From: Polytrichum commune
Lineage: Eukaryota > Streptophyta > Polytrichopsida > Polytrichales > Polytrichaceae
Reading direction: 5' to 3'
DNA: 64,000 bases
NCBI GenBank assembly: GCA_950295325.1
Contig: OX485806.1
Location: 29,762,001-29,826,000 of the forward strand
The number at the start of each line of letters is the position of its first letter. The stretch's first letter is position 1. Both the position numbers and the translations under genes were made by a program. The notes under the pieces are model-generated. The model was not told where the DNA came from and ran no database searches. It saw only the letters and a list, made by a program, of their open reading frames with translations. Positions 18,658-54,516 of the stretch are shown piece after piece.

Positions 18658-19095
18658 TGTTGTAGAACTAGAATTAGCTTCTAGTAAGACAATCTGATGA
18701 TATAGCCAAATAGCCATATGAGGCTTAGGGGGAGAACCAGATGAGCTTAGGGTAAATACCCGGGTCCAGGGTATTGAATTAATTACCTTACCTGGACACC
18801 AACCCAGGTAGTAAAGACTTAGAGTTAAACAACATTAGGATTAAGCCCCAGGGTATCCCGAGGGTATCTAGGACCCTTAAGGGTTAATCAGGATATCCCG
18901 AGGGTATCAGCAGAAGTATCAGCCTGTCAGATACGGCCAGTATACAAAACCTATCAGACATGGACACGTATCAGAGTTAATATTTTATTAATATATCATT
19001 TGTATATATCCTATCTCCTAAGACCAGGGAGGATATGGAATTTACACAAAAACTCTGTCCATTTCTCTATTGTCTGATTATCCATTTGTATATCA
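18658..19095 (+). repeat. Copia 5' LTR
   Basis: 438 bp, starting TG and ending CA, matching 24729-25166 except at 18832. It contains two copies of the GGTATCCCGAGGGTATC-like block and an AT-rich TATTTTATTAATATATC stretch that could serve as a TATA region for element transcription. Confidence 0.96.
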
Positions 19096-19097
19096 CG

Positions 19098-19107
19098 TTA
19101 TCAGCAC
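19098..19107 (+). other. Probable primer-binding site
   Basis: TTATCAGCAC lies two bases after the 5' LTR. It resembles the TGGTATCAGAGC primer-binding site of plant copia elements that use initiator tRNA-Met, but only partly. The position supports the call. The exact tRNA is uncertain. Confidence 0.6.
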
Positions 19108-20206
19108 TGCTCCTGGCCTATTCTGTTCACAATTTTATACTTCTCAAACGCCTTCACACTTCATCTACACTATGCCACTTATTTAGTACATAGATAGCAC
19201 AATCCTGGTGAGGAGCTTGAACGAAACCCAAGAGAGATCTTTAGAACACCTCTGTTTACACATACACACATCACAATCTGTTGCACTTCTCACTGTTCAT
19301 TGTTCATATTCACTTACACTTTTCTGTCTGTCGGCATTCTTCCAATTTTGTGTTACTTTGCCGACTCTCCCTGGTGTCGAAATTTCTTCACACTTTCATG
19401 TCGTTCATTCTTCACTTACAAGGTTATGTTATCTAACTAACATCTTCAATTTTTTCTTCTTCTTCTATTTGTTCAATTATATTCTGTATTTGTCCCCTGT
19501 TATTACTAACATACTCTGTCTATACTGTATATATATATACACTGATATATACTAACATATATATACATTCTTACATACTGTTTGTGTATAAATCTTGACT
19601 AACCTACATTCTCTTTCCCCTCTGTTTATACACTAACCCTTATTATATATATATATATATTCCATAATATATATATATATCTATATAACTTCTCTTTCCT
19701 GGATTAATCCGTTATTCCAGCACTAACATTTCCTTTCTTTACAAATATATATTTCTTAAAATATATTTATATACACACATCCTATTTGTATTTCTGTCAT
19801 CTACTATATTGTTTTCTGTTTGTCTTCTTGAAAATTCGGTTTTCGTACCGAATTGCTGCCGAAATTTTGTAAGATCTCCACTAACCCTTACCCTCTATTT
19901 TTTACTTTCTGATTACCTTTATCTCTGTGATTTCTATATATTTGCTATTTGGCTTTTGTATACTTACTAACTGAATCCTCTGTTTTTGCATATACCCTGT
20001 TATCAACCATTATATACTGTCTCACTAATACTATATTTGGTTTATACATTTTTTTTTTGTATGTTCAAATAGTATATAAACTTTTATATTGGCGAACTTT
20101 ATATTTGTATTTCAACAGTTATCACCCTACCTTGTCATTGTAAATGCTACTGTAAGAACAATTTACAGTCCCGAACTGCTATCCAAATTATTATTAAATC
20201 AGAACA
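19108..20206 (+). other. Long AT-rich leader of the copia element
   Basis: About 1.1 kb separates the primer site from the gag start, with TA-rich microsatellite-like runs near 19640-19690. Open frames of 115 codons (19208-19555) and 64 codons (19949-20143) occur but have low-complexity, hydrophobic translations and no motif. I treat the stretch as an untranslated leader. Confidence 0.6.
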
Positions 20207-23200
20207 ATGTATAGGTTTACTAGAGAGTCTCATGCCACTTTAGGACCTGCAGTAGTAGAATCTAGGCTCCAAGCACTAATGTTCACACCCTTGAGCTCAG
20301 ATGGCAACAATTTTCTAGAATGGATTAACGATGCAAAAACCGTGTTGAGTGCCGAGGACCTGGCCAAGACTTTAATCACCCCTGTTGCATCGACCTCTGA
20401 CGCTCCGGATCCTGCCACCAACATACCTGCTGTATGCAAGTGGCAAGCACTTTTGCTCCTCCGGCGACACCTCGACCAATCCCTCCGACTGCAGTACTTG
20501 GAGATTGACGATCCAGCCGAGCTGTGGGCGCAACTGCACGCGAGATTTCATCACCAACAAACCCTGTTCCTTCCCCAGGCGCGTACTGATTGGATTAACC
20601 TGCGCGTCCTCGACTTTCCTGATTTCGTAAGCTTCAACTCAGAGCTTCATCGAATTGTCGCACAACTTCGACTTTGCGGCCAAGATGTCACTGATGCGGA
20701 GCTGATTGAGAAGACTCTCTCAACGTTTCCACCCGCGACTGCTATCCTATCACAGCAATACAGAAACATGAAATTCAAGAAGCATTCGACGCTCATGTCT
20801 CATCTTCTACTCGCGGAGAAGCATCAACAACTCCTGCTCCGAAACGCTGAATCCCGACCTGCGAGGGAAGTCCACACAACTACTACACAACCTGCAGCTG
20901 ACATCAAAGTTGAGGCGCATGCTGCCGAAGCCTCCAGAAGACCCCCACGAGGTTCTTTTCGAAAATCTTACCCTTCTCACCCCGCAAGAGAGATGCGAGC
21001 CTATGGGAAAAACGATGTGCCTAGGGGTCAGTATCATCAATCAACCAGAAGAGACTCTCCTAGACCCAAACCCCCTCAGTTCAAACCTAGGACCCAACAG
21101 TCCCGCAGTTTTCAAGGCAACTGCCACAGGTGTGGCCGAAAGGGCCACTATGCCAAAGACTGCCGAGCTCCTCCTTACATAGTCAGCATGTATAAGGAGC
21201 TCCAGCAACTTAGAACTCAAACCAGGCAAGCCTATAACTTCGAAAATCCGAACCCAGCTCCCAATCCCTCTCCCTATACTGAAGACATCGAGAACTATAT
21301 GACTCTCTACGAGGGCACCTCATCAAATCCCAATGAGGCCCTCCTAGACAGTGCATCCACTCACACAATACTCACAAACCCTCAATTTTTCCAATTTCAT
21401 GACAATGAGGGACCTTGGCAAAACTGTACCATTATTACAATGGCTGGAAGTCGAAACATTAGGTTTCGAGAGGGCCGGGCAACCATGATATTGCCCGGAG
21501 GATTCCCCCTCAATTGCGAAAAGGCAATGTACGCTCCAGATGCGCCTCGTAGCCTGATCAGCTACAGGGATCTGAGAGCGAGGAATATCCACGTTTCTAC
21601 TGCGGTAGAAAATGATGAAGAGGTCCTGGAACTCAGGCAAGGGCCGACGATCCTTGCCACCGCGAGAGCGGGAGACGATGGCCTATACAAGATTGTCATA
21701 AACCCCCTTGACAATATGAGCCCCATCTCACTGATAGATGAGGAAGAGGTGTGCATGGCTGCTTGGGCGGGAGGCCCTGAAGCAAAACGCCGCAACCTGG
21801 CGCAGGGAGTGTCTATAGACACTAAAGCCAAGCCTGATCTATGGCATGAGAGGTTAGGACATCCGGGCACTACTGTTTTTCGGCGGATGCTTCCCTTATT
21901 AACTGGTCATAACCTCGTTACAGCTGACGCAGGGAAGACTCATGATTGTGTCGCCTGTATTCAAGGTAAATACGCGAAGAAACCATCTCGCTGGACTTTA
22001 CCAACAGAGCTACCCCCTCCCCTGTATAGACTCCATGGGGATGTTTGCGGACCTATTAACCCACCATCAGGAGCTTTTCGGTACTATTTTGTTATAGTTG
22101 ATGCATCGGGCTCCCATTTTGAGGTTGCACTACTACCCACCCGCAACATGGTTTTCCCCAGATTACTAGCAATCCTCCTCCGTTACAGAAATCATTTCCC
22201 CGATTATCCAATTAAGTACCTTCGCATGGATAATGCTCGGGAATTTCGATCTCATGTATTCGAGGATTACTGCACAGCTACAGGCATTATTCTTACCTAT
22301 TCAGTACCCTATGAACACTCACAGAATGGCCTAGCTGAGGCATTCATTAAAAAGATACAACTCATAGCTAGACCCCTACTCCTCCATGCTAACCTTCCAT
22401 CTAACCTGTGGGGACATGCAGTGTTGCATGCAGCCTCTCTACTCAAACTGAGACCTACACTTTTGAATACCCAAACCCCACAAGAGTTATCCTCTGGCAG
22501 AACACCGGATGTTTCACACATCCGAGTATTCGGCTGCCAGGTATGGGTTCCTATCCCAGACCCCCACAGGCACACAATTGGAGCCCACCGTCAATCTGGC
22601 ATTTATGTTGGATTTGATTCCCCTTCAATTATCAGATACCTTGATCCTTCCACAGGGAACCTCTATAAGGCACGCTTCGCCAACTGCCGATTTCTTGAAA
22701 CCATCTTCCCAGCCTTATCCATCAAACCTCACCCTATACCTTTGAACTTTGGTGCACCAGAGACTTTGACAATCATGAACCCTGATCCACCTACCTCATT
22801 ACCTAATACCGAGGTTACTAAACTACTCCATCTCAGAAACCTTGCTGAGAACACACCTGACGGTTTCTCTACCCAGCCTCGAATCATTCGAAATCCTATT
22901 CCTGGTACAGGCAATAATTTACCCCGAAAGAGACCAGGACCAACTTCCCCAACAGTTTTAATACCTAAAATTCCCCGAATCCATTACACAACCGAGTCTA
23001 TTGACTCGATCCCTGAAACTGATCCAATTAACCTAGACCAAGCAATGCAGCGGGCAGACTGGCCTCACTGGAAGGCTGCCATTGAGACAGAATACTCGTC
23101 TTTACGAAAACACGGCGTATTCGCGGAAGTAGCCACAGACCTTGATAAACAGCCTATAGGGCATAAGTTAATTTTTACCCGTAAATTAGACTCCCAAGGT

Positions 23201-24637
23201 AGAGTCTTACGCTATAAGGTCAGATTAGTGGCTCAGGGGTTCACACAGCGACCCGGTATTGATTATGATCAGACCTACTCACCTGTAATGGATACAGTTT
23301 CCTTTCGCTACCTCTTAGCTTTATCTCTTCAATTTCAGCTCAAAATCTATCTTCTAGATGTAGTTACTGCATATCTGCATGGTAATTTGGATACAAAGCT
23401 TCACTTAACCCCACCCCCTGGATTTTTGAAATCTATCCCGAATCCAAAACCAGGTAAATTTACCGGTCTCCGAATCTGTAAGGCCTTGTATGGCCTGAAA
23501 CAGTCCGGGAGAGCATGGTACCACCATTTATGCCATTTTCTAATTTCCCAAGGATTTACTCACAATACAACCTTACCCTGTATATTTACCTACACCTCAT
23601 CATCTGGTTTTGTGATTCTAGCTGTATACGTTGATGACCTAAATATCTTAGGCACACCAGAACTTTGTACATATGCCCAAGAAATACTCACAAAACACTT
23701 TGACATGAAATATCTTGGTCAAACCTCATACTGCCTAGGGTTACAGATTCATTATGTGACTAATGGTGGCATCTTACTACATCAACAAGCTTATGTGCAG
23801 AAAATCCTTAAACTCTTCAACATGGATCAGGCCAAGCCCTTGGCAGCCCCAATGATCGGGAGAAGTAAGACCAATGATGACCCCTACCAACCTCGTGAGG
23901 AGGAGGAGGAGGTAGTGGACAAGCCTAGATACCTCACTGCAATTGGTGCACTCACTTACCTTACAACTCATACTAGGCCTGATATTGCATTTGCCACAAG
24001 TATATTAGCAAGACATAGTCAAAACCCCACCTTGAGACATTGGAATGGCGTTAAACATTTGCTAAGATATTTAAGGGGAACATCAGATCTTGGACTATAT
24101 TACCACAAAACTGACCAGCCTAATATCCAAGGTTTTGCAGACTCTGGGTTTAGGACTGATGTGAATGCAGGGAAATCACAAACTGGGTACATTTCCATGA
24201 AATGTGGCGCACCGATTTCCTGGAAATCTACCAAACAAACAGTTACAGCTACATCGACGAACCATGCGGAGTTGCTGGCGTTCCATGAGGCTGCACGTGA
24301 AATCGTATGGTTGCGAACAATGGAGAAGATTCTGGACCAGCAGTGTAATCTCAAGATCTTGGACCAGCCAACTATCATCTACGAGGACAACTCCGCGTGC
24401 GTACGACAAATGGCTACAGGCTTCATCAAGGCTGATAGAACCAAGCATGTTAGCCCACATATTTTTGGATTTACACAAGATTTGATAGAGCAAAGACAAT
24501 TAGCTATTGTTAAGATAGAATCAGAGAATAATGTTGCGGACATGTTAACCAAGGCATTGCCAGCATATAAGCATAAGAAACTTATGTATGCAGCTGGGCT
24601 TAGAACACTCCAAGAATTAACCTCAGTTGAAGTTTAG
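20207..24637 (+). CDS. Copia gag-pol polyprotein (1476 aa, intact)
   Basis: Single open frame encoding the capsid and enzymes for retrotransposition. Gag occupies about residues 1-330 and ends in a zinc knuckle, CHRCGRKGHYAKDC (306-319). The protease active site is DSAST around D381, where many copia proteins have DSG or DSGA. A GAG-pre-integrase segment (WHERLGHPG, about 545) and a CxxC pair (about 581-584) give the integrase zinc site. The integrase triad is D612, D675 and E711, with the canonical 35 residues between the last two. Reverse transcriptase has YVDD at 1141-1144. RNase H shows D1312 (GFADSG) and D1394 (YEDNS). Length and order are typical of plant copia. No stop or frameshift is seen, so it may be active. 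The ATG is the first in the frame and lies in an AT-rich context. Confidence 0.96.
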   Translation: MYRFTRESHATLGPAVVESRLQALMFTPLSSDGNNFLEWINDAKTVLSAEDLAKTLITPVASTSDAPDPATNIPAVCKWQALLLLRRHLDQSLRLQYLEIDDPAELWAQLHARFHHQQTLFLPQARTDWINLRVLDFPDFVSFNSELHRIVAQLRLCGQDVTDAELIEKTLSTFPPATAILSQQYRNMKFKKHSTLMSHLLLAEKHQQLLLRNAESRPAREVHTTTTQPAADIKVEAHAAEASRRPPRGSFRKSYPSHPAREMRAYGKNDVPRGQYHQSTRRDSPRPKPPQFKPRTQQSRSFQGNCHRCGRKGHYAKDCRAPPYIVSMYKELQQLRTQTRQAYNFENPNPAPNPSPYTEDIENYMTLYEGTSSNPNEALLDSASTHTILTNPQFFQFHDNEGPWQNCTIITMAGSRNIRFREGRATMILPGGFPLNCEKAMYAPDAPRSLISYRDLRARNIHVSTAVENDEEVLELRQGPTILATARAGDDGLYKIVINPLDNMSPISLIDEEEVCMAAWAGGPEAKRRNLAQGVSIDTKAKPDLWHERLGHPGTTVFRRMLPLLTGHNLVTADAGKTHDCVACIQGKYAKKPSRWTLPTELPPPLYRLHGDVCGPINPPSGAFRYYFVIVDASGSHFEVALLPTRNMVFPRLLAILLRYRNHFPDYPIKYLRMDNAREFRSHVFEDYCTATGIILTYSVPYEHSQNGLAEAFIKKIQLIARPLLLHANLPSNLWGHAVLHAASLLKLRPTLLNTQTPQELSSGRTPDVSHIRVFGCQVWVPIPDPHRHTIGAHRQSGIYVGFDSPSIIRYLDPSTGNLYKARFANCRFLETIFPALSIKPHPIPLNFGAPETLTIMNPDPPTSLPNTEVTKLLHLRNLAENTPDGFSTQPRIIRNPIPGTGNNLPRKRPGPTSPTVLIPKIPRIHYTTESIDSIPETDPINLDQAMQRADWPHWKAAIETEYSSLRKHGVFAEVATDLDKQPIGHKLIFTRKLDSQGRVLRYKVRLVAQGFTQRPGIDYDQTYSPVMDTVSFRYLLALSLQFQLKIYLLDVVTAYLHGNLDTKLHLTPPPGFLKSIPNPKPGKFTGLRICKALYGLKQSGRAWYHHLCHFLISQGFTHNTTLPCIFTYTSSSGFVILAVYVDDLNILGTPELCTYAQEILTKHFDMKYLGQTSYCLGLQIHYVTNGGILLHQQAYVQKILKLFNMDQAKPLAAPMIGRSKTNDDPYQPREEEEEVVDKPRYLTAIGALTYLTTHTRPDIAFATSILARHSQNPTLRHWNGVKHLLRYLRGTSDLGLYYHKTDQPNIQGFADSGFRTDVNAGKSQTGYISMKCGAPISWKSTKQTVTATSTNHAELLAFHEAAREIVWLRTMEKILDQQCNLKILDQPTIIYEDNSACVRQMATGFIKADRTKHVSPHIFGFTQDLIEQRQLAIVKIESENNVADMLTKALPAYKHKKLMYAAGLRTLQELTSVEV

Positions 24638-24717
24638 CACTCTTTTCTCTAGTCAGGGTTTTTATCCCACATTGGGTTTTACCTGACAGAGTTTTTAACG
24701 AGGCTAAATCCATCAGC

Positions 24718-24728
24718 TTGAGGAGGAG
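24718..24728 (+). other. Polypurine tract
   Basis: TTGAGGAGGAG abuts the 3' LTR and would prime plus-strand synthesis. Confidence 0.8.
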
Positions 24729-25166
24729 TGTTGTAGAACTAGAATTAGCTTCTAGTAAGACAATCTGATGATATAGCCAAATAGCCATATGAGGCTTAGG
24801 GGGAGAACCAGATGAGCTTAGGGTAAATACCCGGGTCCAGGGTATTGAATTAATTACCTTACCTGGACACCAACCCAGGTAGTAAAGACTTAGAGTTAAA
24901 CAGCATTAGGATTAAGCCCCAGGGTATCCCGAGGGTATCTAGGACCCTTAAGGGTTAATCAGGATATCCCGAGGGTATCAGCAGAAGTATCAGCCTGTCA
25001 GATACGGCCAGTATACAAAACCTATCAGACATGGACACGTATCAGAGTTAATATTTTATTAATATATCATTTGTATATATCCTATCTCCTAAGACCAGGG
25101 AGGATATGGAATTTACACAAAAACTCTGTCCATTTCTCTATTGTCTGATTATCCATTTGTATATCA
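24729..25166 (+). repeat. Copia 3' LTR
   Basis: 438 bp, offset exactly 6071 bp from the 5' LTR, with one difference (24903 G for 18832 A). Confidence 0.96.
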
Positions 25167-25171
25167 CAAAC
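25167..25171. repeat. Copia target-site duplication, right (CAAAC)
   Basis: Same five bases as 18653-18657. Confidence 0.95.
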
Positions 25172-26805
25172 TCTAGCCCCTCATATTCCCTCCACATTTG
25201 GATGAATTCACACTAGAATATGATGGGCAAGTGACCTACATGAAAACTCACCCTTAGTTATTGATTTTTATCCTATTTAGTGAGGGTGGACCAATAGTGC
25301 GCGTGGAAATTAGTGAAGGTGATACTCAATCTCTTTTCCACTAAAATTCGTGCCATCAGAAGATCTAGGATTTCGGGAGTCCAAAGTGTCAAAGTACTAG
25401 GAATTCTTCATGCAAGCTCTCCCCAGTTTCTTAGTGCTAGGAGATGTTGGAGGAGTGAGTGGCGATGATTGATAAAGAACAAAAAAGAAGCCTCTTCGAG
25501 ATCATCGTAACAAAATTATGCACTCTAGCAACGCATTAGAGCACACACTAATTATCTTGAAATGTGTGGTACATGAGGGCAGATTCATAAATTTAGTATC
25601 ACTCGTAAGAATTTCACTCCTCCCTAATTTTGAGAGTTGGCAAATAATAGTGCGCGTTTCGGGAATCAGACTAAGTACACCACACGCACTAAATGAGATA
25701 ATCAGCGCACTGATAACTAACTTGTACTCTTGAAGCTCCTGGAGTCCTGGTGGATCAGGAATTCTAAGTTACCGCCTGCCGCCGGAAGATGAAGAGAAGG
25801 CGCGTGGCGGGATGGGTACGTAGTTGAGGCGGAAGATGTGGACCGACAACCCCGAAAAGCTCATCACCATCATCAACTAGAACTAATCAGACTCAAGGAG
25901 CTGCTTCTGATTTGCAGTAGTTACTTAAGTTAGTACTGCAAACTTAATCAGATCTATGTTGCTGGTTCAAGGGAGCTGGGGGTTGGGGGTTGGGGGTTGG
26001 GAGTACAACAGGGTTGGGTAACTAATGCTGCGGAGGGATAGGTAACGACCAGTCGGCAAGTGATCAGAGAGGAGGTCATGTGCATGCAACTTCATTTGGA
26101 AAGTGGAAAGAAAAGTTCAGGTCTGAGCAATTCAATCGATCGGGACGCCAATGACTCTGATCAATCTCCGACAGATGAGTTGGAGGTTTTAGAGCTATAA
26201 TGTTACTGTGTCGGGAGGATTAAATATTCATTTCTGCAGTGAATTGTTGAAGCTGGGGTGACAAGGCTGTAGCTGGCGGTATTGCTGCTCAGCCTGACCG
26301 ACACTTGGTGGTGAGTAGAGTATAAGTAGGGTCATCAGTGCAAGTGGTTGATCAAGCCGATTACTTCTTGAAGCCTCAGGCCTTTCTGAAGACTGATCTC
26401 CCACCAGCTTCGTCCGACACATGAGAAGTGCATATTATTTGATGTAATTTGGCTGCCGAAGATTCATCAACTTTGATAGTAAGCAGCATCATTCGATCTG
26501 TAGGTCTACATTGATGTCGAGGTAGTTGGAATTATTAGATCATTGAAAGTCTGAATTAGGGGTCTGGTCGCCTGCTCACCACTAATTTGCATGTGACGGG
26601 CATTTGACAGGCTAGTGAGTACCCAGCTCCAGCTCCAGCTCCAGCTCCGAAGTGCCGAATTAATCCTGCGTCACGGAAGATCTCATATTCAAGTTCGTGT
26701 AACATTCATTTGCTGTCACTAGACTTGATCAGTTGATTGTCTGCAAGACTCAACTTGTAACGCCTTCCTGAATTCATCAACGTGGCAGTCATCCTCGAAA
26801 CTCAG
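25172..26805. other. Spacer leading to the Cys-rich gene; G-rich tract and CAGCTC repeat
   Basis: No coding exon is recognised, although base composition rises in G+C from about 25750, which may mark the promoter and leader of the next gene. 25978-26001 is GGG(GG)TT repeated four times, a candidate G-quadruplex. AGCTCC repeats lie around 26624-26647. Confidence 0.5.
25978..26001 (+). repeat. G-quadruplex-like GGGGGTT repeat
   Basis: Four runs of three to five G separated by TT, about 800 bp upstream of the Cys-rich gene. This matches the G3+N1-7 quadruplex pattern. Confidence 0.7.
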
Positions 26806-27837
26806 ATGATGGCAGCTGCAAGCAGCATCAGATTTATCACCAAACTCGGAGGTTCGAATTTCATCAGCTTCCACTGTTGTGATGATGCAGATGAAGAAGA
26901 TTCGACCATGCAAAGTGATTTTGCTATCGTGCACATGAAGCTGCTACACCTCTTCGAGTTGACATTAACATCAACTTTGCTTCATCAACTTCTGCTCATT
27001 ACAGATCAACTGGCATGTCACCCAGGGCGAGGTGCTCGTGATGATGATCATTTCAATGCAGTTGATCAATCTGGGTCAAGCTTTTCATGCGAAGATGATG
27101 ACCAGTGTTGTCGTCATCAATGCGCAAAAATGACGGTGTCATCCGGAATGAAGAAAGTTCAGCTTCCACCAATAATTACCCGCCCAGATGGTGGACATCG
27201 GTGCCCATACATTCCTTGCCCGATTTGCCACCGGGACCGAAATTCTTGTGCAGGAATGTTTGAAGACCATGATTCCTCAGCTGACAGCATCTTCGACAAC
27301 ACCGACATCATTAAATGTGCAGTCATAGCTCCTGTGGCGTGTCCGGACCTGCACGTGTGTAAATTAGAGTTTCCCTGTGAAGATTACTGTGAATTTTACA
27401 CAAAAAAGGTTATAACCGGTTCAAGTACGAAAAATAATCGGCTTCCAGCAATTACTACCTGCCCAGATGGTGGCCGATGTCGGTGCCCGTACACTCCTTG
27501 CCCAGTTTGCCATCCTGGGCAATATTCTTCTCATGTGGGAAATTTTCCTGAAGGCATTGATTCCAGCTCAGCTGACAACGTCCTCAACAATGCCAACATT
27601 AAATGTGAAGTTAAAGCTCCTGTGGTGTGTCTGGATCCCCACGTGTGCAAGGAATTTTCCTGCAAAGAGTGTCATCACATGCATCCCAACCCTACCATGC
27701 AATGGAGTAGTGATCTACAAGTGATCACGAGAAAGGTAAGTAGTTTAATTAGCAGTCAGGCGCCAATAACTTGCCCAGATGGTGGCCGGCACCGTTGCAC
27801 GTATTTTCCTTGCCCAATTTGCCATCCTGGTCGGTAA
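26806..27837 (+). CDS. Cysteine-rich modular protein, unknown family (343 aa)
   Basis: I do not recognise this family. The frame is open without a start back to 26782 (GTG). The first ATG, ATGATG at 26806, is chosen. After a Ser/Asp-rich N-terminal part come five Cys modules alternating between two types. Type A is C-PDGG-x2-3-CPYxPCPxCH: R126-H142 (first Cys replaced by Arg), C219-H236 and C323-H340. Type B is C-x-D-x-H-V-C-x4-5-C-x2-3-C: C179-C195 and C275-H290. A-to-A spacing of 93 and 104 residues, with repeated linkers (SSAD...NN..IKC..APV.C), shows a tandem duplication of a segment of about 100 residues. The arrangement of Cys/His pairs suggests metal binding, but that is inference. There is no signal peptide and no clear membrane span. 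AATAAA copies near 28009 lie about 170 nt after the stop. A related single-module gene is at 34894. Confidence 0.65.
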   Translation: MMAAASSIRFITKLGGSNFISFHCCDDADEEDSTMQSDFAIVHMKLLHLFELTLTSTLLHQLLLITDQLACHPGRGARDDDHFNAVDQSGSSFSCEDDDQCCRHQCAKMTVSSGMKKVQLPPIITRPDGGHRCPYIPCPICHRDRNSCAGMFEDHDSSADSIFDNTDIIKCAVIAPVACPDLHVCKLEFPCEDYCEFYTKKVITGSSTKNNRLPAITTCPDGGRCRCPYTPCPVCHPGQYSSHVGNFPEGIDSSSADNVLNNANIKCEVKAPVVCLDPHVCKEFSCKECHHMHPNPTMQWSSDLQVITRKVSSLISSQAPITCPDGGRHRCTYFPCPICHPGR

Positions 27838-28093
27838 CTAGTTGATAGCTTGGAGCGAATCTTGTGAGTTCATATGTGCGGGTTCAGATTCATGTAGAAT
27901 CGAGATAGGTAGCCAAACAAATTCAAGACATTCATTTATTGGTTTATTCACACATTCATTCATCAGGAAGGTTATTCCTGTGCCATATGTATTACGTCCT
28001 CATTCATCAATAAATAAATAAATGGCACACAGTTTGTATGTCAGATAATACACACATTTGCAAATCTTAGACCCACATTCGAAGACTTTGAAT

Positions 28094-29241
28094 CAGTGTC
28101 TGGGAGATTTTTGAGCATAATCGGTCAAGATCCTAATGTTTCCAAATGCAACTGGTTACATGTGGTGATCTCTTGGTTTTTCTTTATTAATTTGAGGTAT
28201 ATTCCAAAGATTCTTCTAAAAGAATCAATATTTTTCCTGAAGTCTTGAACTTCCACTGGTTATTTCTCAACTGAATTGGTTCATCTGTAACTAACGGTTG
28301 GCTTTCCCTATTCATTTAAGATTATTTAACTATGAAAACAAATTTTGTGCAGAATATAACAGTACTTAACAGTAGACTTGTGTTCGTTTGTCTTGCCTTT
28401 TCCGACATCTGGAGCCTTTATTCTTGGATCTAATGTTGGGCCTATGAACACAACTTATCAACTGAGTCATGTTATGTGGACTTATTATATGGTCACTTAA
28501 AGAGGAAAGAACTAAATTCACTTTGACCACTTATAACTTTTGCAATTCAATTTCAATTCTGAGACTTAAATTGACAATTTGCGTGATACCCAATTTCTAA
28601 CTGGTCGAGAAAAATCTCAGTACAATATAGCGGTCAGACTTATCTGTGGAATTGGAAGGCCCACAAATAGGATCACATACCTCGGTTGCTACGATAATCA
28701 ACTACAAAAACAGGAATTAAACGTTTTAACCTCTGCACCTCGTTGCAAACCGTGCGACTGCTGCATATAGGTATAGCTATATAGAGACCGACAGATATAT
28801 ATATATATATATCGGCCTAATCCTCAACTGAATACTTGGGGAATAATTGATGAGAATGCTCCAAAAGTTTGATTGGCTTGTTACATAATATCCAGACTTC
28901 ACGCAAAATTTCTGGTTTTTGTTCTGAGATGTCCGAATTAACCTGGCCTCAACCTCAAGGTTTGTGCCACTCCCCAGTCTAATCATTCTGATAGACCTTC
29001 TTTGTATGAGCCAGACCAATGAGTGGGGAGAACCAACCGCTAATTACAGCTGAACCGGTTGAGTTTGTGAAATAACTGGTTGAAGTTCAAGACTTCATGA
29101 ATTTACCGGACATTTTAGAGGAATTTATGAAGTAAACCTGACAATAATATAGGAAAACTGAAAGATCACAACATGTAACTGGTTGGACTTGGAAGCACTA
29201 GGGTCTTGACTAATTATGCCCAAAAATCTCCATGGACACTG
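28094..29241. mobile_element. 1.15-kb transposon with about 220-bp TIRs (CAGTGTC...GACACTG)
   Basis: The left arm 28094-28316 and right arm 29022-29241 are long imperfect inverted repeats. Termini are CAGTGTCTGGGAGATTTTTG and, inverted, CAGTGTCCATGGAGATTTTT. The TIRs are filled with ACTGGTT/AACCGGTT motifs, which could be subterminal protein-binding repeats. The interior has an AT microsatellite (about 28796-28812) and a 63-codon frame with no support. No target duplication is visible. Long TIRs recall Mutator-like elements, while the CAGTG ends recall hAT, so I do not classify it. Isolated arms of the same family occur at 11937-12159, 12565-12790 and 37317-37545. Confidence 0.7.
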
Positions 29242-30124
29242 AGCCAGACTGTATAAAATGTGTGGCTCTTTGAATGCAGGGCAATTGTAGACATCCCTAC
29301 TGTTCGTTGAGCAGCATTGGCACGTGGCAGCAGAGAAAAGGAAATTGGGAAGAATCTTCTATATACAGATGAATTTCATAGGTATCCACTTATAAGATTG
29401 TAATATGAGGTCACCGTCAACTTTTGATTGTTGAGTAGAAGTAGAGAGAGATGACACCAACCTTTCATTGACGTGAATGAGAGGCCCTTCATCCTTGGGA
29501 GTAGATTGAGCTCATTTATATGAAGAATTGACTTCTTATTATTATACCATTTGTTTGGTTAGTGTCAACACTTTAGTGGGGGAATGATCTAATTTTGGAA
29601 TCAATACAGTTGGATTGTAAATCATAGATCATTCGAATTTTGAATAATCTACAAGCGACTAATTTTGGAATTTTTTTCATGATTCACGAAAAACTAAAAG
29701 CATAAAGATAATATTTCTTTAGTTGTCTTGGACATTAATCTCCAAATTTATTGAAATTTGATTAGAAAAGGTTTTGAGTTTTGATTAAATAGTTACAAAA
29801 TTATCCGGAAGAAGGGTAAACCATGATTAATTATAGTCAAAATTTACAATTTCATATTATCATGTATTACCTTTATTTCCAGTTTGTGTAAATAAATCCA
29901 CAAAAAAACCTAATTCTTTGACCTTGATATTGACCTTATGAAAAGATCTTTTTATTTCTTGTGTTTTTTGATTGATTTGTGAATCATCTTTGTTCCAACC
30001 CAAGTTCACAACGATCACCAATGCATCTAGTTTTTGGAGTTTTGAGCTCTCAATTGATGATTGATTATATAATTTAATACATGGTAAAAAAGAAGAGTAG
30101 GTTGCCTCATCAACGAGGAAGCTA
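29242..30124. other. Spacer without a recognisable gene
   Basis: AT-rich sequence with no convincing open frame or repeat that I can name. Confidence 0.5.
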
Positions 30125-31017
30125 CACTAAATATGATATTTACTGTCACCAATTCTAATTGCCTTGCTCGATACTAATTGTAAACCACAGTACAGTGTCA
30201 CCAACACTAAATGTTAACCCAACATTATTTATCATTCCTTGTAATTTTTGGGGGGGATTATAGATTTACAGTGTTGCAATTACTGTCACTTCCCAAGTGA
30301 TTTTTCATCCAAATTTCCATCATCCATGACAATATTTCATCACAAGTTGCTGACAAGAGAAGGTAGGGTTTTGGACAATAAATGAACTCATCCATCATCC
30401 ATGACAATATTTGTTCACTTATTCATAAGAAGTGACTTCTGAAAAGTTACCATAGTGACATTAAATACCGTATGATATTAAATACCATATTTAGGGCCTG
30501 TTTAGACTTGGGGCCAAGGCCATTGGTGAACGAAGGCCAATATGTCCCATGTGGCATGTAAATGGGCCCCCAAGGCCGTTAATAAGAAAGTAACCTAACT
30601 CCATTCATTGCTTTCATGTGTAAATCTATTTAGGTGGGGTTGGGGCCATTTGGAGGCTGCAATTATGAGAGGGCTCCAATGTATTCATGAACTATTCTAT
30701 GGATAATGATTAAAGTATAATAAATTTAGAATTTCTCCCTCCTATTCAATGCTCAAAGAATAAACTACTACAAGCAAATAAAAGCTCTGACAATGGCCTC
30801 AACTAGAGGGAAATAGTCCACATGGTTGGGAGCTCTCTTTTCCAAGGCTTGAGGCCATTGTCATGATGAATAAAATAAATTATTTGTTAATTGGCCCCAA
30901 CTCATGGTGTAAACTTGAAGAGGTGAGTCCCAACCTCTCTACCAATGAGAGGAGTGGATTTCTTGCACCCCAGCCCATTTTTGAGCCCTGACTCCAAGTC
31001 TAAACCCGCCCTTAGTG
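30125..31017 (+). mobile_element. Short member of the CACTAAATATG TIR family, split by a MITE
   Basis: The left end, CACTAAATATG after TA, matches 16111 onward for about 200 bp. The right end, read across the inserted MITE, is CATATTTA joined to GTG, followed by TA, which restores the family terminus. Without the 517-bp insert and one TTA the element is about 373 bp, a deleted relative of 16111-18639. Confidence 0.75.
30495..31011. mobile_element. 517-bp Tourist/Harbinger-like MITE with TTA duplication
   Basis: The left end is GGGCCTGTTTAGACTTGG and the right end inverted is GGGCGGGTTTAGACTTGG. Both are flanked by TTA (30492-30494 and 31012-31014), the hallmark of PIF/Harbinger elements, and the GGGCCTGTTT start is the classic Tourist TIR. 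It is inserted in the right terminus of the element 30125-31017, so it is the younger of the two. Confidence 0.88.
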
Positions 31018-34000
31018 TAGTATTTCAAGTCATCAAGAGCATTGAGTATACCAAGCCATCAGTAGTTGAATCACTCTGCAGTCTAATAGAATTATTGAAA
31101 CTAGTTCAATATAAACTAATTTATGGACATTCTATGGTCATTTTTTTAAAGCAGGCACTTATAATTGATTGGTATGGCAATGTTTGGGGATAAGAACAAA
31201 CATAATTTTATGAAGAAAAAACAAAAAAAGCATGTTTTACAATGAAGTGAATGGGGACTAAAAAATAGACATTAGGTTTATAACTTGTACATTTCAATTC
31301 CAACTTTTGAACCTAGAAATGACAATGTTTGTAATTTATGATTGCTAATTGGATGAAGAAATTTTAAATCCAATCCAAAGGCAAGAACAGTTGGAAGGCC
31401 CTGCAACTACAATATACATGAAGTGTGCATGAATATTGTATGACCTTCACGTCACTATAATGTGAACAAGATTGTTAATCGAACAGTATCAAAATTGAAA
31501 AATTGTATTTCATAAGATGGTTTGGAGATTGACAAGATTGTCATATACCAATAGTATGGTGCTAGACTTACTCAATTAGTCTCACATATTTACAAAGAGC
31601 TCATTCTATGGCCAAGGATGTGTGACTTGTTAGTTCTATGACTTGGTCTACGCATTGCTCTTGAGAACTTGGTATCCTAACATCCTCAATGGTGCAGCCA
31701 AAGATACACTTGCAATTGATTGGTGTATTGACTTCTGGTTGTCAAGACTCTCAAATTCTAGTTCTGGAGATTTTAGTACTTGAGTTTCAAAACATCTGAA
31801 AACATCCCCAAAGTGTTTTAAAGCACTAACCAAACTGTTCCAAGCAAGCTGCCTATCCCTATTAGTAGCGTTCAAACCTGCAACCACAAGGGAATGTTCT
31901 TCTCTCGAACCTCCACACCGACTCCAACCATGCACTGAACGAAAACTTACAGAACATGGAAAGTTTTATCATATGCAAAGAACCACCACTCGACCATATC
32001 TGCTGTTGAATTAAAGGGTATGCAAGTTAATGTGCAAAACATTGGACTCATGATTTCTGGGTCAATCTGATCTGTTCATAGCTAGAATTTATCCTGCTAG
32101 CTCGATCGTAGATTAGACGCTCAGATCATCGACGCACAAGACACCCATAACATACAAACAATCGATCACAAGAGGTAGAGTTGGTTGTATCCATCTTACA
32201 TATATTTCTTGCATCTCGACATGAACGTATAATTAAGAATGAGTACCAGAACATTGATGAGAGCTATAAGTGGTTATGGTTTGTCCTTCATCGATCCTTG
32301 TGTTGCGGAGATCCACAGAAGAGTTAGTTTAATTAAAAGGCCAGCAGTCCCAAGGGCCTCCGGAGGGGCATATATAATGCATGGCTACAGTTAGTTGCAG
32401 GATCAGGGAAATTGGAATGAAGAATGTGACAATTGTTGCTCATGTGTTGGAGCAGTCGAAGAGGTACCGATTAATGGCAGCTAAGTAATAAGTTTGGTCA
32501 GCATTATTAGGTCCATTCATCTTGCCACCATTTTCTCCCAACCGCTGGATCGATGTTTTGTCTCAAAAGAAAGAAAGAAAATTTAAAAATTAGAAGGATG
32601 GTACGAATTCCTGCAGGTGCACAGGTGGACTGATCACAGTAGTGGGCGGTGAGACGTGACCACGTGTGAATCGATGGATGGTCCACCTACTCTTAAGGAG
32701 GAATTTAAATTTAAGGAACTGTTTACTTAGTCGGTACGAGATTTGAGGGGACGAGCTCCGCAAAAGTTGACGTTCAGACTTCTTGAGTCCGAGTCAGCTA
32801 CCTTTTAAATCTGCGGTTTCAATTTTCAACGATTTGCTCCTTGGAAAATGTGCGGAGGCCACTAATAAACTAAATTGTCGGGTTGGTTAAGGTTTCTAAA
32901 ATTGCATTGGACACTCCATGTGATGCCACGCGCATCGGAGACTACTATGATCAACTCTTCAACTTCACAACTTCGTGCTCTCACTTGTCATGGTTGAACA
33001 TGAGCATTACTGATCTGCTAATTTTTATAACTTAGGGTTACTCCATCGACTCCACCCTCGCTTAATTCATCTTAATCTATCTGAACATTCTTCATGAATA
33101 GCTACGTCTGTCTATGCAGCATAAGTGTCATTCGATCCGCAGTCAGATACTTGCTCTTGATAGAATTATCCTTTCATTGAACGAGAGTCAGTTTTAATAC
33201 AAAATTAAAACTGTCTTTCTACTTGTGGTGCATCCTCGGAGGTAGTGTTTGAATTTAAATGAAGAGCAACGTGTGTATTTCGTGCTTTGTGAGATTCATT
33301 GAGGATCAAACTCATTTTAGCACCTCTTGACATGTCACCATGCCAAATGCCAAAATGAGTTTGACCGCCAATGATCCCATATAGAGATGTTCTTTGTTCA
33401 AACCTCCACACTACTACCAATCATGCACCCGCAAAAAACCAAACATCAAACGTGGAAGGTGTTGTTTGCAACCCAAAAAACAAACAACGAAAAAAAAACA
33501 AAAACAACTCCCCACCAAAAAGTTTGTTGAGCTAAAGGATGTTAACCCTATTAAGCACATCATTAAGCAGTTAAAGCTCAATACATCACGCTCACATATT
33601 GGTCTATTAAGTTACCTAATTTCTGCATTTCCAGTGGCAGTCCACCTCACCCTGCAAATATATAAGTAGTCGTGGTGAAAGTGGGATATCTTCCATTAAT
33701 CTAGGTATTGGGATAGAGGTGAAGAACTTCATGAGGAGAAATCTGATTGATCGCAGATGAGAAAACTAATCTGAAGTTTAGAGTAATTCTAAGCATTTGG
33801 TGGCTAGCTTACCCATATACACTAAGGTAGATTGCATGGAAATATGTATATAGCATGATCTTGACCAGTCTCGGTTACATGGTTTCCACTTGATCCCTGA
33901 GAATGCAACAATTCTTGTCGTGGTTCAATCCATCCTTAACTAATTATAAATTAGCTGGTTGGTCAAATTATTCCTAGAAGCTTCAGTGCCGCATATGGAT

Positions 34001-34893
34001 CAGCAAGATTAAGTAAACACATATCAAGTCATCATGACTCCTGACTTTAGTTCCTTCTGAATATAGCAATTAAAATGTTTTAGCTTTGACTTTAATTTTC
34101 ATTGCCCATAGCAGTACGCACTGTGATTTGGAAGCCACCATCATTTCCTAGTCGTTACTGCATGTTGGTAGGAAATCTGTATTTAAAATAAGGATGAAAA
34201 ATGAGCAACTTGAGGTGCGCCGGTCTGATCCTCATGAACAACCACTGGTCGAACGGTGATGATATTACCATTAACTTGCTTTCAACTGTAGGGCTCGTGG
34301 CATCAGAAGGGCTACTAAATTTAGTAGAAGCATCTTATGGTGCCCCGTCACCATGAAGAAGAAGAGGAAGAAAATCAAGCTTCACATGGACTCTGCACGT
34401 ACAAGCTTAAGAGCGGTGAGCAATTCACACTGGGTTATACATGCTTCAAACATCACTAATTTTGATTTCTTGCCAGTCTACCGATTTCTTGCCTAGTTGT
34501 TCAGCTTCGGTGATCATCACCAGCATTCATAACGAGTTGTTACTTCCGGGTTCGAATTCAGTGTGCGTGTGGATCGCTACTTTTACAGGTACAATTGATA
34601 AAGCCGTTGCAACAAAACCCTATAATTTTAGCTTTTGATGTGTAAGGTGATACCTAGTAGTACGACGAGTACTTCGACTTAATATGCAATTAATAAACTT
34701 GTCTGTGATTCTTGCTTCTTAAGTCCTTCTTGGAATATTCATCTTTGATTTATTACCGTATTAGTGCTAGTACTATTTGAGCGCCTAATTAGTCTTTCTG
34801 GTGATTCCCGAAGAGAATGAAATCATAATTAGCTGGGTGCCTACCAACTTCAGGGTTTAGGTATCATCACTCATCAACAAAATTCAAGCAATC
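31018..34893. other. Spacer with dispersed short repeats and hairpins
   Basis: 31898-31990 and 33393-33540 share a block (upstream of GTGCATGGTTGG on the minus strand), and 36660-36800 carries a third version. 33456-33520, with an AAAACAACTCCCCACC-type tract, recurs at 39032-39102. Small hairpins: CAGTTTTAAT/ATTAAAACTG near 33191-33215 and AAACTCATTTT/AAAATGAGTTT near 33308-33364. A minus-strand 95-codon frame (31935-31648) reads protein-like but has no recognised domain. I cannot call it a gene. Confidence 0.45.
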
Positions 34894-35259
34894 ATGGCCG
34901 TATCACGGAAGAATGGCTCATTCAACCTGGTGGCCGACGATCACCAGCTCTGCCAGGCATCTGCTTTGAAGTCTTCATCGCAAACTCCGGAGAATATTCG
35001 CAAAGGGAGGTGGTTCAAACTATCAACATCATTCAACTCCGAGCCTGATCCCCACACCTGTAAGGAGTTTCCTTGCCCTGTGTGTGATAGAGCTCGTAAG
35101 AAATCATCACAAGCAAATTATGGCTGCGGCAACCTCGACATCATGTTGACCGCGGGCATCAACAAACCCTTACAGGCCTACAACAATACCTGGCGGGTCG
35201 ACGACAACTTTACCGCTGGGCCTGCATCTGCAAGCGCCTCAAACATCTTCAAGACATGA
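34894..35259 (+). CDS. Short Cys-rich protein related to the 26.8-kb gene (121 aa)
   Basis: ATG in a good context (ATCATGGCC). The protein has one type-B module, EPDPHTCKEFPCPVCD (E50-D65, Cys at 56, 61 and 64), matching the DPHVCKEFSCKEC module of the 343-aa protein. The position of the first module Cys is Glu50. The remainder is Ser/Asn-rich and polar. The TGA at 35257-35259 is followed in the same frame by 64 more open codons with protein-like composition, up to TAA at 35452-35454. The stop may therefore be a recent nonsense change, or it may be genuine. Same strand as its relative, about 7 kb away, which suggests an old local duplication. Function unknown. Confidence 0.5.
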   Translation: MAVSRKNGSFNLVADDHQLCQASALKSSSQTPENIRKGRWFKLSTSFNSEPDPHTCKEFPCPVCDRARKKSSQANYGCGNLDIMLTAGINKPLQAYNNTWRVDDNFTAGPASASASNIFKT

Positions 35260-46637: not shown

Positions 46638-47213
46638 ATTTGTTTTACCTCTCCGACATTTTGGTGGAGTTATCTGACATTCTTTTACTTTCCTTCAGAT
46701 TCTGTTCTCCGAACTCCGAAACTTGGAGCAGCATGATAGTTTGAACCTTTGAAGCAACAAGTCGGTTATGTTAGAGAAGATTCAACGATTTTATTCGAAA
46801 CCTCAAGAACACACAATCTTCTGATACAGACAAGGCTCAAACCAAAATCTTCTGAGAGGGTTTGCAGCAGGCAGGCAGGTAGGCAGCCGAACTGCAAAGC
46901 ATTTCAAAATGATGCTCCAGTGATTATGTTTTTACCCCTCCAACAAGTTGGTGAAGGAATGTGACATTTTCTTACCTGTGTTTCATTTGCTGTTGTCCGA
47001 CCTCCCCGAACTCCGAAATTCACAGCAACAGTTCGAGACCTTAAAGCCACACCAAAGAAGGAAGAGGGTTATGTTAGGGGAGATCCAAATAATGTTATAT
47101 TAAACCTCGAGGGCACACGATCTTTTGAACCAGACAAGGCCTTTACATTAAAGCGAGAGGATTCCCAGCAGGCGGGCAGGGGAGGCAATCCAACAACTCC
47201 AAAACATTCCAAA
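46638..47213 (+). repeat. Tandem duplication of the leader of the EI24-type gene
   Basis: 46638-46925 and 46926-47213 are diverged copies of one segment. Shared landmarks are TTTTACC(T/C)CTCC, GACATTYTYTTAC, CGAACTCCGAAA, GTTATGTTAG, ACAAGGC and GCAGGCAGG, each ending at AAAATGATG. The second copy leads straight into the real start codon (47214). In the first, ATGATG at 46909 is followed at once by CTCCAG and TGA. The first copy therefore looks like the 5' stub of a second gene copy or a duplicated promoter/leader. Confidence 0.75.
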
Positions 47214-48029
47214 ATGATGGTCCCGGCATGGATGTACCCTGTACAGGGATTCTACTTCTTCTTCCGCAACGGCCACAGGCTATGGCAGCGAGTGGCAAGG
47301 TTTGTTGTGGAGGTCGTCGCAGCCATCGCAGCCATCCTCATCATTCTCTTCTCAGCTACATTCCCAACGCAGCGAGCCTTGCTGATCCGGTTCTTACCTC
47401 GATGGACAGGAACACCAGGGGCCATAGCCCTAATTCTTCTAGAAACAGCCATAGCCATTGTGATATTGTTCCAGTACAGGCTGGAGAGTGCACAGAGGAA
47501 GCTGTTCCTTGATGTGTTAGCCATTCGCAATGTGAAGGTGGACATGGCCACAGGGGAGGAGCATGTGTGGTTGGAGGAGACACTTATCCCTCAGATGGCA
47601 GGATCCCCACCCGAGGCCCCCATGAAGAAGGCCAAGGTCAGGGTTTCCAAGAAACCCAACCCTGCAGGGTATCTGAGCCAAGTGTTGACAGAGGATGAGC
47701 ACCCCATTATGCACTTCCTTCTTACTTTGCCTCTGAATTTTGTTCCTGTGGTTGGAAATGTGTTGTTCTGTTTCTTGAACTCGTTCCCCACGGCGGTCGG
47801 GTTGCACCATTACTACTATACGGAGATGAAGGGGTTGAGCTCTGTGGAGTTTTCTGCTGTGGTGCATGCGAAGAAGGCGCAGTACCAGTCTTTTGGCTTT
47901 GTGGCTTCAGCTTTCAGCCTTGTCCCTGGCTTGGATGTCATCCTTGTACTTACGAATGCAGTGGGGGCTGCGCTCTGGGCTGCTGATATGGAGAAGACGC
48001 AGGGGAGCATCAAGACCAAGTACTCTTGA
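47214..48029 (+). CDS. EI24/CysZ-type multi-spanning membrane protein (271 aa)
   Basis: Intronless. Hydrophobic segments lie at about residues 28-50, 69-88, 163-195 and 225-256, with a Lys-rich loop near 135-150. Two conserved stretches, FLLTLPLNFVPVVGNVLF (about 168-185) and TNAVGAALWAADMEK near the C-terminus, closely recall the EI24-domain proteins common in fungi (spore-wall/RRT8-like group). This is recognition from memory, not a search. Family members are ER or lipid-droplet-associated membrane proteins of poorly defined function. MetMet start: the first ATG is taken. The coding region is clearly richer in G+C than its surroundings. Its leader is duplicated upstream, and its 3' end (AATAAA at 48060) merges with a repeat array. 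Horizontal origin from a fungus is possible but unproven. Confidence 0.6.
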   Translation: MMVPAWMYPVQGFYFFFRNGHRLWQRVARFVVEVVAAIAAILIILFSATFPTQRALLIRFLPRWTGTPGAIALILLETAIAIVILFQYRLESAQRKLFLDVLAIRNVKVDMATGEEHVWLEETLIPQMAGSPPEAPMKKAKVRVSKKPNPAGYLSQVLTEDEHPIMHFLLTLPLNFVPVVGNVLFCFLNSFPTAVGLHHYYYTEMKGLSSVEFSAVVHAKKAQYQSFGFVASAFSLVPGLDVILVLTNAVGAALWAADMEKTQGSIKTKYS

Positions 48030-52999: not shown

Positions 53000-54516
53000 T
53001 TGACATGATTTCCGTCGCATTCAACTAGTGAAAAATGTTTATTGATTGCACAATGATTTTCGCATTGGTGATTTACACATGTATTTATACAAATCTACAT
53101 ACGGAAGTTAGATTCGTTTTTCTTGTTACAAGTGGATGCATATGTCGTCTACTATCACAAAATAAAACGAGCAAAAAAACATCTCATTAGCATCCCTATC
53201 CACCCTTCCAAAACTTATCATTTGGAGTAAAACATCCTCATGGGACATTGTGAGGTAAATAGCGTGACAAAATATGTCATCACATTGTAGGCAAGGCAAA
53301 GCAATGCTCTGTAATTTGGGCTTCCTAAAAAGTCTTCGGCCCCGACCTTGGGCCACCTTGGGCTAGGGCCCTTGCTTCTTTAGAAAGCCCTCCCCAAAGG
53401 GCATCACCCTTACACCTACAGATTATGGGGTTGATCTCATGTCAAAGGTGCTCCGTGAAGAATTATATGTAATTTTAAGTTGGATTTTAAACAATCAAGT
53501 TATGAAGGATGAATTTCAAGTTATATCCTTTGCGGTTGGAACATGCAATGATGTCATTGATCATCACCCATGCTTGGTAGACCCTTTTTGAGTCTACATA
53601 TGAGCTTGCAACTATGATCAAGGTGAAGCATCTCTCAATTACACCCACCCAATCCATGGGGAGGTCACTCAGTAGGATTTTTGTGTACCACGTGCGGCGG
53701 AGGGGTATTTGTTTAGGGGCTATTTACCTCCAAGGCGTGAATTAAAAGCTCCCTATAATTACATAATATTCTAAAATGGCCTATTTTTTGGTACCCTACC
53801 ATTACTTATAATGCCCATGTCATTGAAATTTTTTGTAGTCTATATTCCTTTTATTTAAAAAAATTGAATTTAAGAATGTATGCAATGCAAAAGTGATGGG
53901 AAAAGCATGGCAACAAAAAAATATAAAAATTACGTATCATTGCAAAAACCAAGTACAAAACCTTAAAGTGAAAAACTTAAAGTGGATCGTTTCAGACCTG
54001 CTCTTCAAGGTTTCCGCATCAGATCACGCAGCCTGGCTAAAAAACTCTACACAAGATTGGAGAAGAGGATGACGACAAGCAATCCTAAACCCTAAACACA
54101 ACGGTGAGGCTCAAATGTTGTGCACAAACGGGCGCCCTACAATCGGGTTGAAGAGTTTCAAAAGAGAAGGGGAGAAAAACCACCAAGAGAAGTCGGGCAT
54201 AGAGTTAGGCTTCCAATTTCATCCATTTTTGGGTGAATGATGAGTAATTTTTCATCCATCCCTCGTGAGGCATGCGTACAAAATTGATTCTACTAAACAT
54301 ACATCCTAAGATCCTTATTTTGAACCCCTATATCATTTTTACTAAAAGGGAATGGCCCATATTTTATACCTGTCTATTTTACTTGTAATGGGCTTATGTA
54401 CTTTTAATGGACCCTTCATTATTTGGAATTATTTTATAATTTTTATGTCAAATGATTTTAATCCTCCCTATATTATGCCGCACGTCGTTTTTAAAATGCA
54501 CTAAGTGACCTCCCCG

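What the first reader, a model, noticed from the sequence alone, without database searches (positions are those of the whole stretch)
26806..35259. A small family of alternating cysteine modules that I cannot match to any known domain
Seen directly: the 343-aa frame has five modules in A-B-A-B-A order, three with PDGG...CPYxPCPxCH and two with DPHVCKEFxCxxC. The 121-aa frame 7 kb downstream has one B module. The spacing C-x5-7-C-x4-5-C-x2-3-C(H) is shared by both types, so they probably arose from one ancestor by a tandem duplication of about 100 residues. Inference: small metal-binding units, possibly a lineage-specific family.
Basis: partly seen in the sequence, partly recalled or inferred. 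Interest (0 to 1): 0.75.

Follow-up and report, generated by a model that had tools for sequence, protein, structure and literature searches.

The report
Repeated zinc-finger-like motif family, plant
The two genes belong to a fast-changing family, scattered and clustered in this plant genome, whose proteins repeat a tiny histidine-cysteine motif that looks built to hold a metal ion and that no domain library searched here describes.

Summary
The frames and modules are there; the motif needs correcting. The 343-aa frame (26806-27837) carries five modules, the 121-aa frame (34894-35259) one. Single-protein searches of the window's own 408-Mb genome led to 40 modules of at least 24 bits in 18 reading frames, mainly on C4 and C1. 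Aligning 29 of them gives H-x-C-x4-C-x2-C-(G/H): H in 28 of 29, the Cys in 29, 28 and 29 of 29. Translation is supported within the genome: in four paralogue pairs 18 of 18 indels inside frames are multiples of three, against 22 of 66 in flanks; 0 of 28 presumed ligands changed where 7.0 were expected. Yet dN/dS is mostly 0.6 to 1.2. No Pfam, NCBIfam or PDB sequence match explains the module. One divergent AP2-like protein starts with it. Best reading: a minimal metal (zinc) site, CPxC(G) knuckle plus HxC, repeated in poorly structured intracellular proteins as a multivalent binding unit. Metal binding, expression and presence in other plants are untested.

The parts
26806..27837 (+). 343-aa frame (W343), five modules A-B-A-B-A; true start uncertain
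   Evidence: stop-free run 26761-27834 (358 codons) longer than any in 60 simulated windows
27184..27231 (+). module A1 PDGGHRCPYIPCPICH
   Evidence: 27.0 bits with a profile built without window modules
27343..27390 (+). module B1 PDLHVCKLEFPCEDYC, divergent spacing
   Evidence: sequence; aligns with B2 in the internal repeat; 5.4 bits with the profile and under 10 bits; not in the 29-module alignment
27463..27513 (+). module A2 PDGGRCRCPYTPCPVCH (leading His replaced)
   Evidence: 27.6 bits with the profile that includes it, 5.2 bits with the one that does not
27634..27675 (+). module B2 DPHVCKEFSCKECH
   Evidence: 24.2 bits with the profile that includes it, 5.6 bits without
27775..27825 (+). 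module A3 PDGGRHRCTYFPCPICH, at the C-terminus
   Evidence: 27.5 bits with a profile built without window modules
34894..35259 (+). 121-aa frame (W121), one module
   Evidence: length alone not significant, module significant
35044..35088 (+). module PDPHTCKEFPCPVCD of W121
   Evidence: 23.0 bits with a profile built without window modules; best of 25.6 Mb simulated 17.5

Best explanation
The two frames are members of a translated, rapidly evolving multigene family. Shown here: loci carry one to twelve copies of a short motif H-x-C-x4-C-x2-C-(G/H), usually preceded by P-(D/E)-(P/G); copies arise by tandem duplication inside genes and by gene duplication, with clusters on C4 and C1; none of 14 N-termini scanned shows a strong hydrophobic segment. 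Inferred: each motif holds one metal ion, most likely zinc, with the CPxC(G) part acting as a rubredoxin-type knuckle and HxC supplying the other two ligands, which pins a small loop in an otherwise poorly structured chain. The pinned loop is a binding unit for a partner (protein or nucleic acid) inside the cell, and copy number tunes avidity. One copy at the start of a divergent AP2-like protein suggests a role in gene regulation. My estimates: translated family about 0.9; metal (zinc) site about 0.6; intracellular multivalent binding unit about 0.4.
For: Relatives in the own genome; 40 modules of at least 24 bits in 18 frames. Ligand columns 28, 29, 28 and 29 of 29 aligned modules. Indel phase 18 of 18 in frames against 22 of 66 in flanks, four paralogue pairs. 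Ligands 0 of 28 changed in four pairs, expected 7.0, P about 2e-4. The weak PDB matches of the 29-module profile lie on the CPxCG knuckle of rubredoxins and other metal proteins (E 0.23 to 7.8). AP2-like protein L022 starting with the module; 11 of its 19 non-self genome matches (E of these 11 from 2.3e-6 to 7.85) overlap AP2 loci above the Pfam cut-off.
Against: dN/dS about 1 for most whole frames. Cysteines outside the motif also rarely changed (1 of 14), so ligand conservation is not cleanly specific; the W343 internal repeat, where one leading His is replaced, was not in that count, and the C1 pairs share a member. Some modules have lost a ligand: L016 (Cys to Tyr, next module truncated), the first module of L021 4327-4647, the first unit of L011 (by eye). 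AlphaFold models gave no confidence (mean pLDDT 31.8 and 58.3). No transcripts and no other plant were available. The AP2-linked module alone (24.4 bits leave-one-out) would be matched about 0.5 times by chance in 408 Mb, by a hand extrapolation of the simulated score counts; PF00847 itself does not reach E 1 on that protein.
Confidence: 0.45

Rival explanations
1. Metal store or buffer, like a metallothionein: the motifs simply bind zinc, copper or cadmium to keep them harmless, and copy number sets capacity.
For: Cys plus His ligands in repeats, up to 11 modules in one frame; no strong hydrophobic N-terminus.
Against: Cys content is only 3.5 to 8.7% in 14 proteins, spacers are long, several members have one module, and residues other than ligands (P, D/E, the P before the second Cys) are conserved, which a plain metal store would not need.
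Confidence: 0.2
2. Decaying family: open frames that were once constrained and now drift nearly neutrally, with little present function.
For: Omega 0.94 to 1.20 in the C1 and M pairs; degenerate modules at L016, L021 and L011; W121 is no longer than chance frames.
Against: 18 of 18 indels in phase against 22 of 66 in flanks; no ligand change in 28; chance of no stop under random substitution 0.04 to 0.18 per pair and 0.08 for the W343 repeat, each modest on its own.
Confidence: 0.15
3. Precursors of secreted disulphide-bonded peptides released from the repeats.
For: Short conserved motif repeated between variable spacers, as in peptide precursors (sequence).
Against: Three Cys per motif is an odd number, a near-invariant His is not explained, no clear signal segment among 14 proteins (highest 12-residue mean hydropathy near the start 1.64; a simple scan only), and one motif sits at the start of an AP2-like protein.
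Confidence: 0.08
4. The CPxCH of the A modules is a covalent haem c site (CxxCH).
For: A modules in the window and modules of L011 read CPxCH.
Against: The trailing H is G, D or N in many modules while the leading H is kept in 28 of 29; no export signal seen.
Confidence: 0.01

Closest known systems
Rubredoxin-type CPxCG knuckle (rubredoxins, zinc ribbons)
   Same: The C-P-x-C-G half of the module; the 17 distinct PDB sequences at E up to 10 match the 29-module profile on this part (E 0.23 to 7.8).
   Different: The second knuckle is replaced by an H-x-C just before it; the match is five to eight residues long, with no full-length match.
Lar restriction-alleviation family (PF14354, TIGR03655)
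   Same: M2 (L015) scores 30.3 bits, above the Pfam cut-off of 28.6.
   Different: Best stretch covers 11 of 58 positions and no stretch passes on its own; the close copy M1 scores 25.4, under the cut-off; the NCBIfam score of M2 is 22.3 against a cut-off of 39.6. Taken as spurious.
C2H2-type fingers, Di19 and FPG/IleRS fingers (PF00096, PF05605, PF06827)
   Same: Weak matches: M1 to zf-Di19 E 7.7e-5, M2 to zf-C2H2 E 5.7e-4, the L022 module to zf-FPG_IleRS E 0.014.
   Different: All under the curated cut-offs, over short Cys-containing stretches.
AP2/ERF domain proteins (PF00847)
   Same: L022 has a divergent AP2-like region; 11 of 19 non-self matches overlap AP2 loci.
   Different: PF00847 does not reach E 1 on L022; the other 15 family proteins scanned show no AP2 match.
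NF-X1 and retroviral-type zinc knuckles (recalled, not aligned)
   Same: Short Cys/His motifs that bind one zinc each, found in repeats.
   Different: Ligand order and spacing differ; neither appears among the Pfam matches of the 16 family proteins scanned.
Metallothioneins (recalled)
   Same: Cys-based metal ligands in repeats.
   Different: Lower Cys content here (3.5 to 8.7%), near-invariant His, long spacers.

Membership tests
Any Pfam-A or NCBIfam family | Score over the curated cut-off with coverage of the profile | tested here: not met
   16 of the 18 family frames were scanned in Pfam (E limits 5, 5, 1 and 0.1); only M2 passes a cut-off (PF14354), by 11 of 58 positions. NCBIfam: 5 proteins, none over a cut-off. 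L017 and the 57-codon frame of L011 were not scanned.
Rubredoxin / zinc ribbon | Two CxxC(G) knuckles | tested here: not met
   One knuckle per module, partner is HxC.
AP2/ERF (for L022 only) | AP2 domain over the PF00847 cut-off | tested here: not met
   No PF00847 match at E up to 1; related to AP2 proteins by pairwise matches.
Metallothionein | Metal binding at high stoichiometry | not testable with these tools
   Only Cys content was measured: 3.5 to 8.7%.
Secreted peptide precursors | N-terminal signal peptide | tested here: inconclusive
   Simple hydropathy scan only, 14 of 18 frames, maximum 1.64; true starts are not known.
c-type cytochrome | CxxCH in every site | tested here: not met
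   Trailing position G, D or N in many modules.
This H-x-C-x4-C-x2-C family | Four ligands at that spacing and similarity of the surrounding residues | tested here: met
   Two modules of W343 and the one of W121 found by a profile that left them out.
This H-x-C-x4-C-x2-C family | Metal binding | not testable with these tools
   Structure models without confidence.

The most novel reading that the evidence does not exclude
An undescribed minimal zinc module, four ligands within about eleven residues (H-x-C-x4-C-x2-C), that has spread in one plant lineage as single and tandem copies in intracellular proteins, has been joined to an AP2-like DNA-binding protein, and evolves fast except at the ligands.
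Probability: 0.35. Interest if true: 0.65.

Novelty: new variant of a known kind. Interest (0 to 1): 0.5.

Why it matters
If the module binds a metal it would be a very short single-site zinc unit, and a family in which duplication of such units can be watched inside genes (units of the L011 array are nearly identical). It would give plant biologists a defined family to test for expression and metal binding. If it binds nothing, it still shows a fast-evolving translated family that the domain libraries searched here miss.

Tried and rejected
Tried without result: Pfam on W343 and W121; PDB by sequence with W343 (3 matches, E 0.3 to 1: a neurotoxin and two nucleoplasmins, taken as unrelated), with a 14-module profile (2 matches, E 0.72 and 1.1) and a 29-module profile; NCBIfam; one scan of bacterial and archaeal genomes with M2 (24 pattern hits, none confirmed) and one of IMG/VR with W343 (no pattern hit). 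AlphaFold on W343 alone (pLDDT 31.8) and on a 38-residue piece with A1 (58.3); no fold search was run because the models carry no information. Fetched but without a module: L018, L019, L026, L027, L028. Weak genome matches with stops inside (such as C2:36.69, C1:12.80 and C1:22.81 Mb, C2:53.75 Mb) were not fetched.

Rejected: a transposon-borne domain (no copy of either gene elsewhere in the window at DNA level, and few matching loci in the protein searches, whose counts are lower bounds); haem c; Lar family membership; a conserved long-gene plus short-gene pair at 1.94, 2.03 and 29.79 Mb. The 6 to 8 kb spacing recurs, but apart from dispersed repeats the window gene regions share only a 45-base stretch of module with the 2.03-Mb segment and none with the 1.94-Mb one.

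Literature: spacing strings (19 papers listed), module strings (no paper in the held library), lineage, moss or AP2 terms: nothing on this family seen in titles and starts of abstracts. I opened none of those papers; of PMC5890265 I saw passages only.
Full report
What is there. The 343-aa frame (26806-27837, +) and the 121-aa frame (34894-35259, +) exist as described. The window lies at C4:29762001-29826000 of an assembly of 408 Mb in 64 contigs. I take it for a land plant: 121 AP2-domain matches at E up to 10, spread over C1 to C7 and one small contig. Seven large contigs would fit a moss with n = 7, such as Polytrichaceae, but that is recalled and untested.

Family in the own genome. W343 found distant relatives on the same contig (best non-self E 6e-4): an open frame of 856 codons at C4:33.94 Mb with eleven modules, mostly of two alternating types, plus a 57-codon frame with one more, and the S genes. 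Following new members with single-protein searches (one search added nothing new) gave two M genes with three and four modules (C4:1.937 and 2.023 Mb), two S genes (C4:1.944 and 2.030 Mb), a two-module gene (C4:3.797 Mb), six frames on C1 at 76.05-76.07 Mb with another at 76.43 Mb, a two-module frame on C5 (31.455 Mb) and a protein on C1 (11.12 Mb). Scanning the window and the 18 loci L011-L028 with the 29-module profile lists 41 stretches of at least 10 bits. One, at 10.1 bits (window 53627-53713), I drop; the other 40 score 24 bits or more and lie in 18 frames. That profile contains many of them, so scores with the module left out matter more: W343 27.5 and 27.0, W121 23.0; L022 24.4, L023 26.0 and 14.3, L025 25.1 and 21.9, L021 first frame 27.0, L024 24.1, L017 with its two paralogues left out 19.2, L016 24.0, L021 second frame 9.3. 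The best in 25.6 Mb of simulated window is 17.5. Extrapolating those counts by hand to 408 Mb leaves about 0.5 chance matches at 24 bits, so single-module frames outside clusters, L022 included, are likely but not certain members, and the second L021 frame rests mainly on its place in the cluster.

The motif. The alignment holds 29 modules; repeated near-identical units of L011, the M2 copies and the divergent B1 were left out. Modules that have lost a ligand exist: L016 (second motif Cys to Tyr; the next module is truncated), the first module of L021 4327-4647, and the first unit of L011. They were seen by eye; of them only the L016 one is among the 29, so the column figures lean towards conservation.

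Is it translated? For four paralogue pairs aligned without regard to codons, all 18 gaps inside the frames are multiples of three, against 22 of 66 in the flanks (C1a-C1b 2/2, C1a-C1c 5/5, C1b-C1c 3/3, S1-S2 8/8). The three C1 pairs are not independent; without C1a-C1c it is 13 of 13 against 15 of 49. The M pair was not put through this test. Frame identity exceeds upstream identity in all four pairs (0.774, 0.822, 0.825, 0.815 against 0.655, 0.767, 0.724, 0.731), and downstream identity too, narrowly for C1b-C1c (0.804). Ligand residues: 0 of 28 changed in four pairs (C1a-C1b, C1c-C1b, M, S) where 7.0 were expected from the other residues, P about 2e-4. Other cysteines changed in 1 of 14, so part of this is general Cys conservation, and the W343 internal repeat, with one His replaced, was not in the count. 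Against: dN/dS is 0.61 (S), 1.20 (M), 1.07, 1.00 and 0.94 (C1), 0.65 and 0.36 (W343 internal repeats; only the last has Fisher P below 0.05, 0.024), and 0.64 to 1.62 among the L011 units, where changes are very few. Within C1 pairs the module codons are not more conserved than the rest in amino acids (6 to 8 of 15 changed against 31 to 40 of 102); in the M and S pairs they tend to be (2 of 45 against 29 of 196; 1 of 15 against 37 of 118; Fisher P 0.08 and 0.07). The M pair is 94.6% identical over 709 bases that include the start of the gene, while upstream DNA is near 77%. With omega near 1 this looks more like recent gene conversion than constraint.

What it may do. The CPxCG half is the knuckle used by rubredoxins and zinc ribbons. 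The 17 distinct PDB sequences that the 29-module profile reaches at E up to 10 match on it (E 0.23 to 7.8), a resemblance of five to eight residues and no more. Two further ligands from HxC would complete a one-metal site in about eleven residues. Fourteen N-termini scanned show no strong hydrophobic segment. L022 on C1:11.12 Mb begins MPEPRH and continues after the module into a region whose genome matches coincide with AP2 loci in 11 of 19 cases, all 11 above the PF00847 cut-off, though several of these matches are weak. PF00847 does not reach E 1 on L022 itself, AtERF1 matches at E 0.26 only, behind ribosomal protein S9, and the intact relative L027 has an AP2 match under the cut-off (19.1 bits). 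From this I infer an intracellular binding unit, possibly regulatory. Metal identity, partner and location are not shown.

Comparison with the known. No Pfam or NCBIfam family describes the module. The one cut-off pass, PF14354 on M2, rests on repeated 11-residue stretches; matches of M1 and M2 to zf-Di19 and zf-C2H2 and of L022 to zf-FPG_IleRS stay under their cut-offs. Paper searches for spacing strings and module strings showed nothing on it, though spacings can be written in other ways. I could not search plant proteomes, so I claim no more than absence from these libraries.

Noticed in passing
L019:1-6807 (C4:33928500-33935306): A Ty3-type retroelement beside the 856-codon gene carries a C-5 cytosine DNA methylase match (PF00145, E 3.1e-12) and a PHD finger (PF00628, E 2.1e-11). 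Methylase-bearing retroelements were reported in Symbiodinium and the alga Klebsormidium nitens (PMC5890265, passages seen); the words moss and Physcomitrella do not occur in that text.
   Followed up: partly
18658-25167: Young Copia-type element with 99.8% identical LTRs (18658-19096 and 24729-25167) and an intact frame of 1476 codons, 1.6 kb upstream of W343.
   Followed up: partly
46965-48026: Open frame of 354 codons with a match just under the cut-off to EI24/CysZ membrane proteins (PF07264, 31.5 bits, cut-off 32).
   Followed up: no
L026:1448-1708 (C3:22.23 Mb): Broken relative of the AP2-like part of L022 (52% identity, two stops inside); no module found in that locus.
   Followed up: no
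L014:1664-2371 against L015:1649-2355: M genes are 94.6% identical in a block while DNA upstream is near 77%: possible gene conversion.
   Followed up: partly
L011:2882-5449: Units of about 139-140 codons in the 856-codon frame; two of them differ by one base over 139 codons, so the array has grown or been homogenised recently.
   Followed up: partly
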